Positions 3,043 through 26,011 of a stretch of 64,000 nt of DNA are shown here, in pieces (position 1 is the first letter of the stretch; every line of letters begins with the position of its first letter). Both the position numbers and the translations under genes were made by a program. Location: positions 1-64,000 of the forward strand of contig CAMDGQ010000006.1 in NCBI GenBank assembly GCA_945897955.1, read 5' to 3'. The stretch comes from Tepidiphilus sp. J10 (GTDB taxonomy: Bacteria; Pseudomonadota; Gammaproteobacteria; Burkholderiales; Thiobacillaceae). The notes under the pieces are model-generated. The model was given only the letters and a program-made list of their open reading frames with translations. It was not told the origin of the DNA and ran no database searches.

Positions 3043-4333
3043 TGCTTACCCTTTGAAAAAATCCGATGGCTTCCGTCAAAGCCATCCGCTGTTGCTCGGG
3101 CGGTTGCCCGCGTTCCTGCACAAATTCACCACGCAACGGTTTCACCGTCACCTGATTTTCCGCCATCTCGTCGTCGCCGATCAGAACCGCGTATCGGGCG
3201 AGGCTGGCGTCCGCCTTCTTCATCTGGGATTTAAAGCTGCCGCCGCCGCCATGCATGATCACATCAAGCCCGGCATCGCGCAGCTTCTCTGCGGCCAGAG
3301 GAGCATAGCGCGCCGCCGCCTCGCCAACATTGACCAGATACACATCGGGTGCGTCGGGCGCGGGCAGCAGCCCTGCTTCCGACATCATCACCAGCAGGCG
3401 CTCCACCCCCATCGCGAAACCACATGCCGGCGCCGGCTTGCCGCCAAGCTGGGCGACGAGGCCGTCATAGCGGCCGCCGGCGCATACCGTGCCCTGGGCG
3501 CCGAGTTTGTCGGTAACCCACTCGAACACCGTGTAGTTGTAGTAGTCGAGTCCGCGCACCAGACGCGGATTCACCCGATAGCTGATGCCGGCATCGTCAA
3601 GGCCTTGCCTGACCGCGTCGAAATGCTGCCGCGCGTCGGCGTCGAGTTCGTCGATCAGTTGCGGCGCGGCTTCCACCAGCGCCTGCATGGCCGGATTCTT
3701 CGAATCGAGGATGCGCAGGGGATTGGTCAACAAACGACGCTGCGAATCGGCATCGAGTTGCTCGGCATGCGCCTCGAAATAGGCGACCAGCTTCTGGCGA
3801 TGGCTGGCGCGCGCTTCCGGTCCGCCCAGGGAGTTGATTTCGAGCCGCACAAACTCGGCCAAGCCGAGCATTTTCCACAGTCGCGCGGTCATCAGCAGGT
3901 GTTCGATATCGAGATCGGGGCCGGCATAGCCGAGCGCCTCGACACCAACCTGATGGAATTGGCGATAGCGGCCTTTCTGCGGACGTTCGTGGCGGAACAT
4001 CGGGCCGGCATACCAGAGCCGCTTGCCGCCATCGAACAGCAGGTTGTGTTCGATCGCCGCGCGCACGCAACTGGCAGTGCCTTCGGGGCGAAGCGTCATC
4101 GACTCGCCGTTGAGTGCATCGACAAAGGTGTACATCTCCTTCTCGACGATATCGGTGACTTCGCCAATGGCACGCTTGAACAGACCGGTATGTTCAAGGA
4201 TGGGCGTACGCATCTCGCGATAGCCATAATTTTTCAGCCAGGCACGGATGTTCTGCTCGAAATGGGCCCACAGGGGGGCATCAGCCGGCAGCAGGTCGTT
4301 CATGCCGCGCACGGCGCGGAGGGCGTTGCTCAT
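3026..4333 (-). CDS. hisS: Histidine-tRNA ligase
   Basis: This class II aminoacyl-tRNA synthetase charges tRNA-His. All expected signatures are visible in the 435-residue product: the N-terminal [12 protein letters not shown], motif 2 [16 protein letters not shown], the histidine loops [15 protein letters not shown] and AGGRYDGL, motif 3 [10 protein letters not shown], and a C-terminal anticodon-binding domain. Length is normal. Upstream, a 94-nt gap to ispG is filled by GTGAAA-type repeats that could form a hairpin in the mRNA leader. Its 3' end overlaps the TPR gene. Confidence 0.97.
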
Positions 4334-20837: not shown

Positions 20838-21359
20838 TCAGCCTGGCGGAAACCGCAATTGCGAGAAGCTGCGTCCATTCAGGATCGCTCGACGCTCGAC
20901 CTCGGCGGCGGAATCCAGCCAGCCGCGCTGTTCAAGGAATAACAGAAAAGCGCGAGTACTCACCTTGCGGGCGTTCCCCGGCAGCAAAAAGCCGGCCCGC
21001 GCAATCTTGTGGTCCTCGAACAGAAAGACCCCGGTGCGCGGCGGACTCAGGACAGCAAACTGGTTCATGGTCTCCTGGATGGCAAATTCACCCAGGTTGG
21101 CTTTTACCGGAGGCGAAGCCGCCTCGGCCAGCACAGCCTGGTATTGCCGGAACAACTGAGTGGCGCGAACTGGCAAATGCCTGGCCGCGACCCATTCGCC
21201 AATGGCGCGGCTGGTCGGGGTTTCGTTGCGGGTCACTTCATGCAACACCATATCGACGATTTCCACCGACCAACCCGGCTTCAACAACAAGTCCAGCGCA
21301 TCCGCATACGCCAGCGTAATCAATGGCCCGGCATCGGGCAGCAGCGCGATATCAGTCAC
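20838..21359 (-). CDS. PIN-domain toxin
   Basis: The 173-residue product starts DIALLPDAGPLITLAYADALDLLL, the hydrophobic-strand-plus-Asp start of PIN-domain ribonucleases. Further acidic residues fall where the metal site needs them: Glu in VLHEVTR, Glu in NLGEFAIQE, and Asp in VFLFEDHKIA. PIN toxins of VapC type cleave RNA, often initiator tRNA or rRNA. It lies 6 nt downstream of a ribbon-helix-helix gene, the usual toxin-antitoxin arrangement. It is longer than classical VapC (about 130 residues), so I do not give it that name. Confidence 0.75.
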   Translation of the reverse strand: MTDIALLPDAGPLITLAYADALDLLLKPGWSVEIVDMVLHEVTRNETPTSRAIGEWVAARHLPVRATQLFRQYQAVLAEAASPPVKANLGEFAIQETMNQFAVLSPPRTGVFLFEDHKIARAGFLLPGNARKVSTRAFLLFLEQRGWLDSAAEVERRAILNGRSFSQLRFPPG

Positions 21360-21365
21360 AGGCTC

Positions 21366-21713
21366 TCAGTCGGCCAGTGCGTCAAGGCTCTCCACCATCC
21401 CCCGCGTGGCGACCGCCGGCAGGCGCGGCATGGGCAGATGCGCCTGCGCCATCAGCAAGAACAGATCTTCCTCACTGCCGATTCCCAGACGCGCCAGCGT
21501 CGCCCGGTCATCCGCGCGGCCCAGCGAAAAGTCCAGCAAAGCCCGGAAGTTCTGATTCCCGCCCGCCTCCGCAGCCTCAAAGGTCTCCACCAGATAGCGC
21601 AACTCGGCATTGAACAAGGCATTGATCGAGGTATCCGCCTGCGCCGCCACCACCTTGGCGCGCTTGAGCAGATCGCGGTCAACGGAACCGGTGAAGTTGA
21701 CAGTAGTGGACAT
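21366..21713 (-). CDS. Ribbon-helix-helix antitoxin of the PIN module
   Basis: The 115-residue protein has an N-terminal strand-helix-helix segment (TVNFTGSVDRDLLKRAKVVA, then ADTSINALFNAELRYLVE) of the CopG/Arc ribbon-helix-helix type. It ends in a hydrophobic tail (EEDLFLLMAQAHLPMPRLP) that could occupy the toxin active site. AAGGAA lies five bases before the ATG. The palindrome just upstream is the probable operator, so the pair is likely autoregulated. No specific named family was recognised. Confidence 0.72.
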   Translation of the reverse strand: MSTTVNFTGSVDRDLLKRAKVVAAQADTSINALFNAELRYLVETFEAAEAGGNQNFRALLDFSLGRADDRATLARLGIGSEEDLFLLMAQAHLPMPRLPAVATRGMVESLDALAD

Positions 21714-21748
21714 GGCGCTTCCTTAGCTGATGAATGACCGGGCCAGAT

Positions 21749-21768
21749 TAACACATGATTATGTGTTA
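21749..21768. promoter_or_regulatory. Palindromic operator/promoter of the toxin-antitoxin pair
   Basis: TAACACAT-GATT-ATGTGTTA is a perfect 8-bp inverted repeat, 36 nt upstream of the antitoxin start. Read on the minus strand it contains CATAAT, a good -10 hexamer, so a repressor bound here would block the promoter. This fits conditional autoregulation by an RHH antitoxin. Confidence 0.65.
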
Positions 21769-22213
21769 GCCCGAGGATGGAGCTACAGCCTGTGAATTGC
21801 CAGCAAGTTTTCCACAGGCCGGCCAGGGCGAGATAACTGGCTGCTAGACAAGCGCGGGGAAAATGGCCTGGAAAGAATCTACCGCTTGGCTTGGCTGGGC
21901 TGGATTAAAAAAAACTGAAATCACGGTGGGCGACTCCCATTCTTGCGGTTTCGGGCATCTTGCGCGCCCTTGATATTGAATTTGCTTGGCGGCGGCAATT
22001 TAGCACTGCTTGTCGAGCGCCAGCCACCCGATGCCGCGTCTGAACCTGTTTGGCGCTTACCTTTCGCATTGCTTGGCCGTGGATGCGATTGGTTCGGCCC
22101 GATTTAACCAAGATTGCCTGCCGGGGCGTAGGGTGCGCCATGCGCACCTCTCAGCCGCTCAGTGCGCATGGCGCACCCTACGGTTTCATGGATAAATCCG
22201 GCCGGATCAATAT
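21769..22213. other. Intergenic region between antitoxin and hvfC
   Basis: This 445-nt stretch contains no convincing gene; an 80-codon open frame on the minus strand (21905-22147) has no ribosome-binding site and Arg-rich shadow-like composition. The only structured item is the long palindrome at 22127-22182. The first part (21770-22060) shows nothing I recognise. Confidence 0.6.
22127..22182. repeat. Long perfect inverted repeat (REP-like hairpin)
   Basis: Two 21-bp arms (22127-22147 and 22162-22182), core GTAGGGTGCGCCATGCGCAC, are exact reverse complements around a 14-nt loop. Hairpins with this GTAGGGTGCGCCATGCGC core are dispersed in many proteobacterial genomes. This one lies 31 nt after the end of hvfC and could act as a transcript end or mRNA stabiliser for the hvf operon. 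Confidence 0.8.
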
Positions 22214-22978
22214 TCAAACCAGAACCCCGAGAAAAACGCCCTGTTCGTGCATCTCTTTGAGCAACGTTTGCGCAAAGCCGAACAAGGCATCCGGCGTCTG
22301 GCCCATTTCCCGCGCCAGCTCGGTGACGGCCTGGCGTCCGCTCAGGCGGGGGTTGTTCTGAATCAGACTGATCAGGCGGGCGCTGGCCGCGTTGAGCAGG
22401 ATGAAGCGGACGTTGAGGTCGGCATCGCGAAAAGCCAGCGTGAACGTCGGTTGCACGGGCGGTTCACTTGGCTTGTAGCGCGGCGACAATCGATGCACCG
22501 GCCAGCGATAGGCCAGTACGCGCAAGACCGGATTGAGCAGCGGCCGCCCCGTCAGAAGATCGCCGGCCGGATCATGCGCCGGCAGATGTGCGTCGCGATT
22601 CGAGGTATCCAGTTCCAGTTCGATCCATTCGTAATGCGCCAATTCGGGCAGGAAGGCGGGCATGTCGTCGGCCGGTTCCCATTCCGTCTGGAGATAGCTC
22701 AGAAACTCCTCCGGAATCTGCCGAAAGTAAGGCGTATGGCTGACGTGGTCGCGAAAGAAGGCCCGCGCCAGCCTGTCCCAGCGCCGCTTGCCCAGAATCC
22801 GGCGGCAGACCGGAAAACAGGACAGCAGAAAACTTTCGACATTGTTGAACAGCAGGCTGTTGTAAACCTTCATGCGCCGCGCCGGCACGCCCTTGGGGCG
22901 GCTGACATTGCGCGGATCGCGGATATGGGCGGTGAACTCGCGCTGGTATTGCTGGAAATCCGGTTGTTGAAAATCCAT
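22214..22978 (-). CDS. hvfC: HvfC-type DUF2063 protein, partner of the DUF692 RiPP enzyme
   Basis: The 254-residue protein has the DUF2063 start (QQYQREFTAHIRDPRN, then YNSLLFNNVESFLLSCFPVCRRILG) and a C-terminal part ending in DALFGFAQTLLKEMHEQGVFLGV. In bufferin and HvfA pathways, DUF2063 proteins form a complex with the DUF692 (MNIO) enzyme and recruit the precursor peptide. It begins 2 nt after the stop of the DUF692 gene, so the two are co-translated. The family is also labelled putative DNA-binding in databases, but the context favours the RiPP role. Confidence 0.85.
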   Translation of the reverse strand: MDFQQPDFQQYQREFTAHIRDPRNVSRPKGVPARRMKVYNSLLFNNVESFLLSCFPVCRRILGKRRWDRLARAFFRDHVSHTPYFRQIPEEFLSYLQTEWEPADDMPAFLPELAHYEWIELELDTSNRDAHLPAHDPAGDLLTGRPLLNPVLRVLAYRWPVHRLSPRYKPSEPPVQPTFTLAFRDADLNVRFILLNAASARLISLIQNNPRLSGRQAVTELAREMGQTPDALFGFAQTLLKEMHEQGVFLGVLV

Positions 22979-22980
22979 GT

Positions 22981-23850
22981 TCAGGCGGCCCGCGCGATGC
23001 TTTGCCGGTGATTCGACTGAATCCGCGCGATACGCGCCACTTCCGGCATCAATTCCTGCAATGGCGGAATGTTGAAATCGCGTTCCAGACAGGTCGGATG
23101 TACGCCCAGCAGGCCGTATGCGGTATCGAGCAATTGCCAGACCGGGTCGATGACCTCGGCGCCGTGGGTGTCGATGATCAGATCCGGCGCTTGCCTGTGG
23201 TGGCCCGCCATGTGCATGTAAACAATGCGCTCGGCCGGTACATCGGCTTGCAACCGGCGCAGGTAATCAACCGGATCGAAGTTGAAGTTCACGCTGTTGA
23301 CGTAGATGTTGTTGACGTCCAGATGCAGCAGGCAGTCGGCCTCGGCCAGCACGGCTTGGATGAAGGTCGGCTCGTCCATCTCGGCGATCGGCGCGGCGAC
23401 GTAATAACTGGCGTTTTCGATGGCGATTTTCTGTTCAAGGATGTCCTGCGCCCGGCGTATGCGGGCAGCGACATGTTTCACCGCCGCCTCGGTCGGCGGA
23501 ATCGGCATCAGGTCGTAGAGATGACCGTGGTCGGAACAGTAGGAAAGGTGTTCGGTGTAGAGCGAAATTCGATGTTCGGCCATGAAGGCCTTGATCTTGC
23601 GCAACAGCACTTCGTCGAGTGGCGTCGGGCCGCCCAGAGAGAGCGACAGGCCATGGCAGACAAAGGGGAAGCGCTCCGTGAACAGGCGCAGATCACGCGC
23701 GTAACGTCCGCCCAGATCGATCCAGTTTTCCGGCGCCAGTTCGAAAAATTCGATGCTTTCGGGAAACCCCGTGTTCAGCGCGGCCTTGAGCTCAGGCAGA
23801 AGGTCGCGCCGAAAACCGAGTCCCGCGCCGGAGAGACGCGGGGTTTTCAT
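22981..23850 (-). CDS. hvfB: HvfB-type multinuclear non-heme iron oxidase (DUF692/MNIO)
   Basis: DUF692 enzymes use two or three iron ions to oxidise cysteines in ribosomally made peptides; HvfB-type members turn the Cys of EGKCG motifs into 5-thiooxazole. The 289-residue product shows the family's metal-ligand segments in order: LAPENWIDLGG, HGLSLSLGG, TEHLSYCSDHGH, AIENASYY, LHLDVNNIYVNSVNF, YMHMAGH and IDTHG. I start at the ATG at 23850 (MKTPRLSGAGLGFRRD), where homologues begin; the in-frame extension to 24198 is the antisense-like second frame of hvfA and is not protein-like. The gap to hvfA is 19 nt. Confidence 0.93.
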   Translation of the reverse strand: MKTPRLSGAGLGFRRDLLPELKAALNTGFPESIEFFELAPENWIDLGGRYARDLRLFTERFPFVCHGLSLSLGGPTPLDEVLLRKIKAFMAEHRISLYTEHLSYCSDHGHLYDLMPIPPTEAAVKHVAARIRRAQDILEQKIAIENASYYVAAPIAEMDEPTFIQAVLAEADCLLHLDVNNIYVNSVNFNFDPVDYLRRLQADVPAERIVYMHMAGHHRQAPDLIIDTHGAEVIDPVWQLLDTAYGLLGVHPTCLERDFNIPPLQELMPEVARIARIQSNHRQSIARAA

Positions 23851-23869
23851 GCAGTTGTCCGTTCGGCGA

Positions 23870-24292
23870 TTACTTGCTGGCGCCGCACTTGCCCTGGCCG
23901 CACTTGCCTTCCTTGGCCTTCGCCTTGGCTGCGTCGCCGCACTTGCCTTCCTTGGCCTTGGCCTTGGCTGCATCGCCACACTTGCCTTCGCCGCACTTGC
24001 CTTCCTTGGCTTTCGCCTTGGCGGCATCACCACACTTGCCTTCCTTGGCCTTGGCGGCATCGCCACACTTGCCTTCCTTCGCCTTGGCCTTGGCTGCATC
24101 GCCACACTTGCCTTCGCCGCACTTGGCCTGGCCGCACTTGCCTTCAGGTGCCTTGTCGGCCGCAACCATGTATCCCTTGCCCAGGGTCTGGGCCGCAAAC
24201 GGGTTCTCGGCAGAGAACGCCGGCGCGGAAGTCAACGACAAAGCGATTGCGGAACCCAGAGCCAGGGTCAGAGCGGTTTTTTTCGAAGCCAT
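23870..24292 (-). CDS. hvfA: HvfA-type secreted RiPP precursor with EGKCG repeats
   Basis: The 140-residue precursor has a Sec signal peptide (about 1-28, ending APAFSA), a short linker, and a low-complexity Cys-rich part from residue 50. I count eight EGKCG motifs plus QAKCG and QGKCG, with cysteines at 53, 58, 63, 76, 87, 100, 105, 118, 131 and 136, separated by DAAKAKAK or DAAKAK spacers. In Haemophilus HvfA and Caulobacter bufferins such cysteines become 5-thiooxazole groups that bind copper in the periplasm. AGGAG lies seven bases before the ATG. The repeats also exist at DNA level as 33-39-nt units, so copy number may vary between strains. Confidence 0.92.
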   Translation of the reverse strand: MASKKTALTLALGSAIALSLTSAPAFSAENPFAAQTLGKGYMVAADKAPEGKCGQAKCGEGKCGDAAKAKAKEGKCGDAAKAKEGKCGDAAKAKAKEGKCGEGKCGDAAKAKAKEGKCGDAAKAKAKEGKCGQGKCGASK

Positions 24293-24505
24293 GTTGTATC
24301 TCCTGAATATTCAAAATTTGAAATTGTTTGCACTGGCGGATCTGCTTTGCCCAGCCTGGAAAAGCCAAGTTCGGCAGCGGAAAGAACAAGCAAATGCGGA
24401 CTCGTTTTTCCTGCATAACCAATGAGTTTTCATCGGTCGCGGCAATCTATGCGGAGTTCTTCAAAACAGCAAGTTCTTTATAAAAGTCAACAAGATAGCC
24501 AACTC

Positions 24506-24535
24506 TTGAATTGAATTTTTTCGGGTCAATATAGG
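24506..24535 (+). promoter_or_regulatory. Candidate promoter of hsp20
   Basis: TTGAAT (24506-24511) and TATAGG (24530-24535) are separated by 18 nt, about 50 nt before the start codon. The -35 overlaps CTTGAA, which also begins the sigma-32 consensus, but no CCCCAT -10 follows, so heat-shock sigma control is not clearly supported. Confidence 0.45.
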
Positions 24536-24585
24536 TATTGCCAGCCGGATGGATTTCCGGTTTTCCTCACAGAAAGGAGCAAATC

Positions 24586-25020
24586 ATGAGCAACATTGTC
24601 AGGCGCGAACCCTTCGCACTCGATGACATGCTGGATGATCTGTTCAAGGGCTATTTCGTGCGTCCGATGCGTTTTGCGGGAGAAATGCCCGAGATGCGGA
24701 TGATCAGGATGGATGTGAAGGAAGGCGACAAGGATTACATGCTGCATGCCGAGTTGCCGGGCGTCGGCAAGGACGATATTCATGTCACGCTGGAAGGCAA
24801 CACGGTTGCGGTCAGCGCCGAAGTCAAGAAAAACAGCGAAGAGAAGGAAGGCGACAAGGTGCTGCGCAGCGAGCGCTATTACGGCAAGGTCTATCGCAGT
24901 CTCGCGCTGGGCCAGGAGGTGGACGAAACCGGCGCGCGGGCGAAATTCGAGAACGGCGTGCTTGAATTGGTGCTGCCGAAGAAAGCCGCGACCGCCGCCG
25001 TGAAGTTGGCCATTGAATGA
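24586..25020 (+). CDS. Hsp20/alpha-crystallin small heat-shock protein
   Basis: Small heat-shock proteins hold unfolding proteins in large oligomers until other chaperones act. The 144-residue product has a short N-arm (LDDMLDDLFKGYFVRPM), an alpha-crystallin domain (about 45-130) with ELPGVGKDDIHVTLEGNTV and the conserved FENGVLELVLPKK, and a short C-terminal tail. AGGAG lies seven bases before the ATG at 24586. It is divergent from hvfA and ends at a strong terminator, so it is monocistronic. Confidence 0.94.
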   Translation: MSNIVRREPFALDDMLDDLFKGYFVRPMRFAGEMPEMRMIRMDVKEGDKDYMLHAELPGVGKDDIHVTLEGNTVAVSAEVKKNSEEKEGDKVLRSERYYGKVYRSLALGQEVDETGARAKFENGVLELVLPKKAATAAVKLAIE

Positions 25021-25036
25021 ACCTTGCATTGGGTAA

Positions 25037-26011
<975 letters not shown>

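What the first reader, a model, noticed from the sequence alone, without database searches (positions are those of the whole stretch)
22214..24292. Complete HvfA-HvfB-HvfC RiPP operon with a Cys-rich EGKCG precursor
Three consecutive genes encode a secreted precursor with ten Cys in KCG motifs, a DUF692/MNIO oxidase and a DUF2063 partner, with 19-nt and 2-nt gaps. In Haemophilus (HvfABC) and Caulobacter (bufferins) such sets make 5-thiooxazole-bearing, copper-binding peptides. The product of this cluster would be a new variant with its own motif number and spacing.
Basis: partly seen in the sequence, partly recalled or inferred. Interest (0 to 1): 0.85.

Follow-up and report, generated by a model that had tools for sequence, protein, structure and literature searches.

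The report
A standard copper-binding peptide gene set
A bacterium carries three genes that very probably make a cysteine-rich, chemically modified copper-binding peptide of a type already described in many bacteria, so the find is real but ordinary; its main use is as a natural test of how the modifying enzyme chooses its sites.

Summary
On the minus strand, hvfA (24292-23870), hvfB (23850-22981) and hvfC (22978-22214) lie 19 and 2 nt apart, and HvfA has ten Cys, all in KCG. HvfB and HvfC pass NCBIfam's HvfB and HvfC cut-offs; HvfA passes the KCGExKCG domain cut-off but not the stricter HvfA equivalog one. Metal-ligand and substrate-selectivity residues are present. This is a captophorin (EGKCG/oxazolin-type) cluster, a class already described: about 2,000 precursors (PMC12452194), 5-thiooxazoles shown for three products (PMC13097082).

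A private motif number and spacing means little: across 92 related loci the precursor has 1 to 12 CG sites, 6 to 12 in the window's own set of 13, while the N-terminal leader stays nearly fixed.

Not in the first report: the genome holds a second hvfABC set followed by doxX, in a separate clade. The window copy lacks doxX and sits between gltB and hsp20-argB, as in many relatives. Three of its ten sites are isolated, although the Fontimonas enzyme failed on a one-repeat minimal peptide. Modification, export and copper binding here are inferred.

The parts
23870..24292 (-). hvfA: 140-aa precursor; signal-peptide-like residues 1-28 (by eye), leader ENPFAAQTLGKGYMVA, then a core with 10 KCG sites (Cys spacings 5,5,13,11,13,5,13,13,5)
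   Evidence: (KCGExKCG_twice 63.4 bits, cut-off 19.5)
22981..23850 (-). hvfB: MNIO (DUF692) enzyme, 289 aa
   Evidence: PF05114 324 bits; NF003818 403.4, cut-off 360; 3bww E 1.2e-72
22214..22978 (-). hvfC: DUF2063 + NGO1945_C partner protein (PME type 1, RRE), 254 aa
   Evidence: NF050145 292.7, cut-off 142; 3dee E 2.8e-15
24444..24497 (-). block conserved upstream of hvfA in orthologous loci (TATCTTGTTGACTTTTATAAAGAACTTGCTG ... TAGATT): candidate promoter/operator
   Evidence: alignment of 10 upstream regions, coordinates; the sigma-70 consensus scan found nothing, so a candidate only
24300..24304 (-). Shine-Dalgarno-like AGGAG before hvfA; hvfB and hvfC have no obvious one in the 22 nt before their starts
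22127..22182 (.). perfect 21-nt inverted repeat, 14-nt spacer, 31 nt beyond the hvfC stop codon; a dispersed genomic repeat that could act as terminator (inference)
   Evidence: the arm has 28 places with at most 1 mismatch in the genome, 0 for the pattern read backwards
24538..25020 (+). divergent Hsp20 gene, neighbour in many relatives (context, not claimed as a part of the pathway)

Best explanation
hvfABC is a captophorin (EGKCG/oxazolin-type) biosynthesis operon. HvfC binds the conserved leader of HvfA through its RRE and holds it to HvfB. HvfB, a di-iron O2-dependent oxidase, converts the cysteine of each KCG site into a 5-thiooxazole with loss of 4 H per site (predicted total about -40 Da if all ten react). 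The modified peptide is exported by Sec, and its thiols bind Cu(I) in the periplasm as a buffer against copper stress. Shown here: gene order, family membership of HvfB/HvfC, presence of metal-ligand and selectivity residues, conservation of the leader, and a conserved orthologous locus. Inferred from characterised relatives: the modification, its order relative to export, copper binding and physiological role.
For: HvfB and HvfC pass the curated equivalog cut-offs, HvfA the KCGExKCG domain cut-off. HvfB aligns with 3bww (E 1.2e-72) and keeps H66, H101, E145, D178, N180, H213, H217, D227, H229 and E256 (positions), invariant in 9 of 9 aligned HvfB. The residues N175/D242/H244 of H. influenzae HvfB, whose loss abolished activity (PMC13419390, passages), map to N180/D227/H229 through 3bww on the assumption of a one-residue numbering shift; H. 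influenzae HvfB itself was not aligned, and the other ligand assignments are recalled. The Arg-Arg pair and Asp-Phe dyad of FonB (PMC13097082) are present as R14-R15 and D258-F259 (matched by motif, FonB sequence not in hand). HvfC matches 3dee, the partner in the gonophorin cluster. In 12 of 12 other members of the window's 13-row set, hvfB stands with hvfC and a Cys-repeat precursor.
Against: No experiment on this product. HvfA fails the strict HvfA equivalog cut-off (64 against 95). Orphan precursors exist in two genomes rated 99% complete in which no HvfB relative was found (G007 of the same genus, G023 of the same family), so the peptide may have a use without modification. Three of ten sites are isolated, and FonBC did not modify a one-repeat minimal peptide (PMC13097082).
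Confidence: 0.9

Rival explanations
1. HvfA works mainly as an unmodified, metallothionein-like thiol peptide; HvfBC modify few or none of its cysteines.
For: Orphan hvfA-like genes: G007 (99% complete, no HvfB relative) keeps one beside hsp20-argB with no hvfB or hvfC in the 4.5 kb taken; G023 (99% complete, none) likewise has one without hvfB or hvfC. The landscape paper counts 67 of 2583 genomes with Buf_EGKCG but no MNIO (PMC12452194).
Against: In the window and in 12 of 12 other members of its set hvfB and hvfC stand with the precursor, and the listed ligands are invariant in the 9 HvfB aligned.
Confidence: 0.05
2. It is a bufferin proper (Buf1/DUF2282 or Buf2).
For: The MNIOs are close: HvfB also matches the BufB model (238.5 bits).
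Against: The BufB cut-off is 310, not reached; HvfA matches no Pfam family, so not DUF2282. No Buf2 profile was at hand. A true DUF2282 gene lies elsewhere in the genome, C1:34578-34727.
Confidence: 0.02
3. The modification is oxazolone/thioamide, as in methanobactin and as first assigned for oxazolin.
For: NCBIfam still names the family oxazolone/thioamide-modified.
Against: Oxazolin was reassigned to 5-thiooxazole by two groups (PMC13097082; PMC13419390, passages). HvfB is far from MbnB (29.6 bits, cut-off 325).
Confidence: 0.03

Closest known systems
Fontiphorin cluster fonABC (Fontimonas thermophila), captophorin class
   Same: Minimal A-B-C set without doxX; EGKCG repeats; Arg-Arg and Asp-Phe residues (PMC13097082, sections read)
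   Different: FonA has seven sites; here ten sites, three of them with no partner five residues away
Oxazolin, hvfABC of Haemophilus influenzae
   Same: HvfB/HvfC equivalog families; EGKCG sites; six 5-thiooxazoles in oxazolin (PMC13419390, abstract)
   Different: Ten sites; HvfA equivalog cut-off not reached (64 against 95)
Buf_EGKCG/oxazolin family of Antoine et al. 2025
   Same: Signal-peptide precursor, MNIO, PME type 1
   Different: Described type 1 repeats are 17 residues with two EGKCG each (PMC12452194, passages); four of the nine Cys-to-Cys steps of the window precursor are 13 residues. The genome's second HvfA has mostly the 17-residue type (5+12)
MmrA (product bulbicupramide) of Microbulbifer
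   Same: Conserved leader, core with a variable number of EGKCG (five to eight) (PMC12538549, abstract and passages)
   Different: Three two-Cys cassettes in the MmrA studied; mixed triple, double and single sites here
Bufferins (DUF2282 / Buf2), Caulobacter
   Same: MNIO + DUF2063, thiooxazoles and copper role (PMC12452194, passages)
   Different: Precursor does not match DUF2282

Membership tests
Captophorins / EGKCG-oxazolin type | MNIO enzyme of the HvfB group | tested here: met
   NF003818 403.4 bits, cut-off 360
Captophorins / EGKCG-oxazolin type | PME type 1 partner (DUF2063 + C-terminal RRE-bearing domain) | tested here: met
   PF09836, PF22106; NF050145 over cut-off
Captophorins / EGKCG-oxazolin type | Cys-rich precursor with Lys-Cys 5-mer repeats beside the MNIO | tested here: met
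   10 KCG, 8 EGKCG; NF050137 over cut-off
Captophorins / EGKCG-oxazolin type | MNIO metal ligands and Lys-Cys selectivity residues | tested here: met
   residues named in PMC13097082 and PMC13419390, matched by 3bww alignment or motif, the rest recalled
Captophorins / EGKCG-oxazolin type | Sec signal peptide on the precursor | tested here: inconclusive
   Seen by eye and aligned; no predictor run
Captophorins / EGKCG-oxazolin type | 5-thiooxazole, -4 Da per Cys, about 305 nm absorbance | not testable with these tools
   needs expression and mass spectrometry
Captophorins / EGKCG-oxazolin type | Cu(I) binding | not testable with these tools
   needs biochemistry
HvfA equivalog (NF050188) | score over curated cut-off 95 | tested here: not met
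   64 bits; so a family member by domain model, not an HvfA equivalog
Four-gene cluster with doxX | doxX gene next to hvfC | tested here: not met
   3 DoxX matches in the genome, none on the window's contig C6; the second cluster has one
Bufferin Buf1 | DUF2282 precursor | tested here: not met
   HvfA: 0 Pfam families
Bufferin Buf2 | Buf_6/12Cys precursor profile | not tested
   no such profile turned up in the two libraries scanned (Pfam, NCBIfam)

The most novel reading that the evidence does not exclude
One genome runs two lineages of captophorin machinery that have divided the work: a doxX-less one (window) whose enzyme accepts isolated EGKCG sites 11-13 residues apart, and a doxX-linked one working on paired sites, mostly in 17-residue repeats. 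If so, the window's HvfBC would break the two-repeat requirement seen for a minimal Fontimonas peptide, and the two products would differ in copper stoichiometry or in the conditions that induce them.
Probability: 0.25. Interest if true: 0.4.

Novelty: new member of a known kind. Interest (0 to 1): 0.2.

Why it matters
As a single finding it adds one more cluster to a class said to take in tens of thousands of MNIOs (PMC13097082, abstract). It is useful because one genome carries two enzyme lineages with differently spaced sites, which makes two open points testable side by side: whether an isolated EGKCG is a substrate, and what DoxX adds. It also shows the enzyme (83-87% identical between the window and its four nearest loci) and the leader staying nearly fixed while the Cys array is rebuilt.

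Tried and rejected
Beta-helix fold of the core (proposed for a mid-size family member in PMC12452194): AlphaFold2 of window HvfA with an 11-row alignment gave mean pLDDT 42.9, and of the second HvfA alone 45.6. No fold is supported; low confidence neither proves disorder nor excludes a copper-bound fold.

Hsp20 as a functional partner: hsp20 lies near in 26 of the 92 loci of the tree, and argB too in all 26, so shared gene order explains most of it. One exception in placing: in L065 hsp20 lies on the other side, beyond doxX. Not claimed.

Promoter: the sigma-70 consensus scan found 0 sites in 21700-24700. An aligned block (24497-24444) is conserved. A regular expression written after seeing that alignment hit 7 of 13 set members, not the window itself (which departs at one base), and 0 of the other 79 loci, against 0.085 expected per 13 shuffled sequences. 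Kept only as a candidate.

Rfam: no match in 21500-25200. DUF2282 membership rejected. A link between repeat type and enzyme clade: not supported, since paired and single arrangements both occur within the window's set and within the C1 set.

Weak points of the counts: one search kept 80 of 314 confirmed relatives, so the survey leans to close kin. In the 92 rows the precursor of L077 and L091 was found only as a fragment, and L103 was cut at a late start (its full frame, read, has a variant leader SVF...GGYMVA); these rows stayed in the counts. Six of 92 rows, the window's own short locus L094 among them, were not scored for doxX; for the window the whole-genome search stands in. The tree is a quick one with some long branches.

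Full report
What is there. On the minus strand lie hvfA (24292..23870, 140 aa), hvfB (23850..22981, 289 aa) and hvfC (22978..22214, 254 aa), with 19-nt and 2-nt gaps. HvfA starts with a signal-peptide-like stretch, followed by ENPFAAQTLGKGYMVA and a 93-residue core with ten cysteines, all in KCG; eight are EGKCG, one QAKCG, one QGKCG. Shuffling the core 20,000 times never gave more than four KCG. The DNA array shows related tandem repeats, so expansion by slippage or recombination is likely (inference).

Families. HvfB: Pfam MbnB_TglH_ChrH 324 bits, NCBIfam HvfB equivalog 403.4 over a cut-off of 360, nearest solved chain 3bww, E 1.2e-72. HvfC: DUF2063 and NGO1945_C, HvfC equivalog 292.7 over 142, 3dee E 2.8e-15. 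HvfA: KCGExKCG_twice 63.4 over 19.5, but the stricter HvfA equivalog model gives 64 against 95. The result against full identity with Haemophilus HvfA is thus a failed equivalog cut-off, not a failed family.

Active site. In an alignment of nine HvfB, H66, H101, E145, D178, N180, H213, H217, D227, H229 and E256 are invariant. H. influenzae HvfB loses activity when N175, D242 or H244 is changed (PMC13419390, passages); through 3bww, and assuming a one-residue numbering shift, these map to N180, D227 and H229. The remaining ligand roles are recalled. FonB Arg15/Arg16 and Asp249/Phe250, tied to catalysis and to Lys-Cys substrates (PMC13097082, section read), have counterparts by motif in R14/R15 and D258/F259.

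Where it lives. The window is on contig C6 of a 3.9-Mb, 128-contig genome, rated 92% complete. One same-genus genome (G006) has its hit on a contig of exactly the length of NCGJ01000003.1, a Hydrogenophilales MAG, so the host is probably a member of that order (inference; Thiobacillus and Hydrogenophilus titles are among the near hits).

A second copy. The genome has two MNIO matches and two DUF2063 matches. The other set, on C1, is hvfA (138 aa, ten KCG in five EGKCGEGKCG pairs), hvfB, hvfC and a DoxX gene. The two HvfB are 65% identical. In a tree of 92 HvfB the window copy falls in a set of 13 (SH-aLRT 95) and the C1 copy in a separate set of 9 (99) (quick method, some long branches). All 9 of the C1 set have doxX downstream; 0 of the 12 others in the window's set do, and none of the three DoxX matches of the genome is on C6. 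HvfB relatives were found in 27 of 41, KCGExKCG matches in 22 of 41.

Gene order. In the window's set (12 relatives, 4-kb flanks), argB is found in 11, hsp20 in 9, gltB in 8. The window has gltB on one side and hsp20-argB on the other. This points to an old, vertically kept locus, not a recent arrival (inference). The two small genes between hvfC and gltB (20838-21713) hit none of the other loci searched (L014-L123).

How variable is the precursor? I read the precursor at 92 loci (80, the window and C1 copies, 10 more). CG sites run from 1 to 12; the window has 10, as do six others. In the window's set of 13 the counts are 10, 12, 8, 11, 10, 10, 10, 8, 8, 9, 6, 10 and 6, with spacings from 5 to 42. 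The leader NPF...GY (or SPF, RY) is seen in 88 of 92; of the four others, L077 and L091 were found only as fragments, L103 has a variant (SVF...GGYMVA) and L113 lacks the NPF part. So leader and enzyme are largely kept, the array is not. This agrees with what was reported for Microbulbifer (PMC12538549, passages): in this family a private motif number and spacing is common.

Isolated sites. The window's ten Cys fall into 3+1+1+2+1+2: three sites have no partner five residues away; the C1 precursor has none such. At least one isolated site occurs in 63 of 92 loci, and only isolated sites in 12 of 92. Fontimonas FonBC modified a peptide with two repeats but not one with one (PMC13097082, section read). 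Either isolated sites within a long peptide are fine and the one-repeat peptide failed for another reason (length, leader distance), or they stay unmodified. The window and C1 pair could decide this.

Mechanism. The best reading is the published captophorin route: leader recruitment by HvfC, 5-thiooxazole formation by a mixed-valent di-iron HvfB with loss of 4 H per Cys, Sec export, Cu(I) binding. For this operon only the genetic parts are shown; every chemical step is carried over from relatives. Leader recognition by the RRE was modelled for Microbulbifer MmrC (PMC12538549); single Ala changes before the core of a minimal FonA peptide were tolerated (PMC13097082), which is against any one leader residue being essential.

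Against the reading. Orphan precursors exist: G007 (99% complete) keeps an hvfA beside hsp20-argB with no hvfB or hvfC in the 4.5 kb taken and no HvfB relative found in the genome, and G023 (99%) has another. G008 and G012 also lack an HvfB hit, but are 84% and 58% complete, and in G008 the gene lies near a contig end. PMC12452194 counts 67 of 2583 such genomes.

Literature. Two word searches listed five papers on this or near-by chemistry that I considered. I read three of four parts of the results section of PMC13097082 and passages; sections 14 and 20 and passages of PMC12452194; abstract and passages of PMC13419390 and of PMC12538549; and only the listing of PMC12636315. I make no claim that the doxX split between the two lineages is unpublished; neither search aimed at it.

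Verdict. Real, correctly described, and ordinary: a new member of a known kind. Interest 0.2.

Noticed in passing
L003:6182-8713 (genome contig C1): A second hvfABC set followed by doxX in the same genome, with paired EGKCG mostly in 17-residue repeats; its clade carries doxX in 9 of 9 rows.
   Followed up: yes
L124:1097-5932 (C1, about 30-35 kb): A DUF2282 bufferin-type precursor with no MNIO nearby (the genome's two MNIO matches are elsewhere); its neighbours look like a thioredoxin-like protein, gluconate dehydrogenase subunit, GMC oxidoreductase, DoxX, ECF sigma and anti-sigma (names apart from DUF2282 and DoxX recalled from sequence).
   Followed up: partly
L126:2082-2663 and L127:1761-2210: hvfA-like precursors without hvfB/hvfC in two genomes rated 99% complete; L126 keeps the hsp20-argB neighbourhood and has what looks like nuoN on the other side (name recalled).
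   Followed up: partly
L027, L029, L030, L031, upstream of position 4001: Nitrosospira precursors with a single Cys (EGNCG) fused to EF-hand-like stretches (by eye), still next to hvfB and hvfC matches: possible natural one-site substrates.
   Followed up: no
L042:2249-3078: A precursor resembling the second type followed by a doxX match without its own MNIO between, placed upstream of an hvfBC in a Thiobacillus MAG.
   Followed up: no
window 22127-22182: Perfect 21-nt inverted repeat just past hvfC; the arm occurs at 28 places in the genome with at most one mismatch, 0 for the pattern read backwards: a dispersed palindromic repeat.
   Followed up: partly
window 20838-21713, minus strand: Two adjacent small genes (115 and 173 aa) between hvfC and gltB with no Pfam or NCBIfam match; they look like a toxin-antitoxin pair (by eye) and hit none of the other loci searched.
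   Followed up: partly
window 23753-24425, plus strand: Long open frames (183 and 221 aa) antisense to hvfA, probably a by-product of the repeat's codon make-up.
   Followed up: no
L028, L045, L049, L050, the 1000 nt upstream of hvfA: In 4 of 4 Thiobacillus loci read, a frame like an ECF sigma factor ends about 330 nt and a small Cys-bearing anti-sigma-like frame about 75 nt before hvfA, suggesting sigma control there (by eye, no family scan); the window has only the 245-nt gap to hsp20 in that place.
   Followed up: partly
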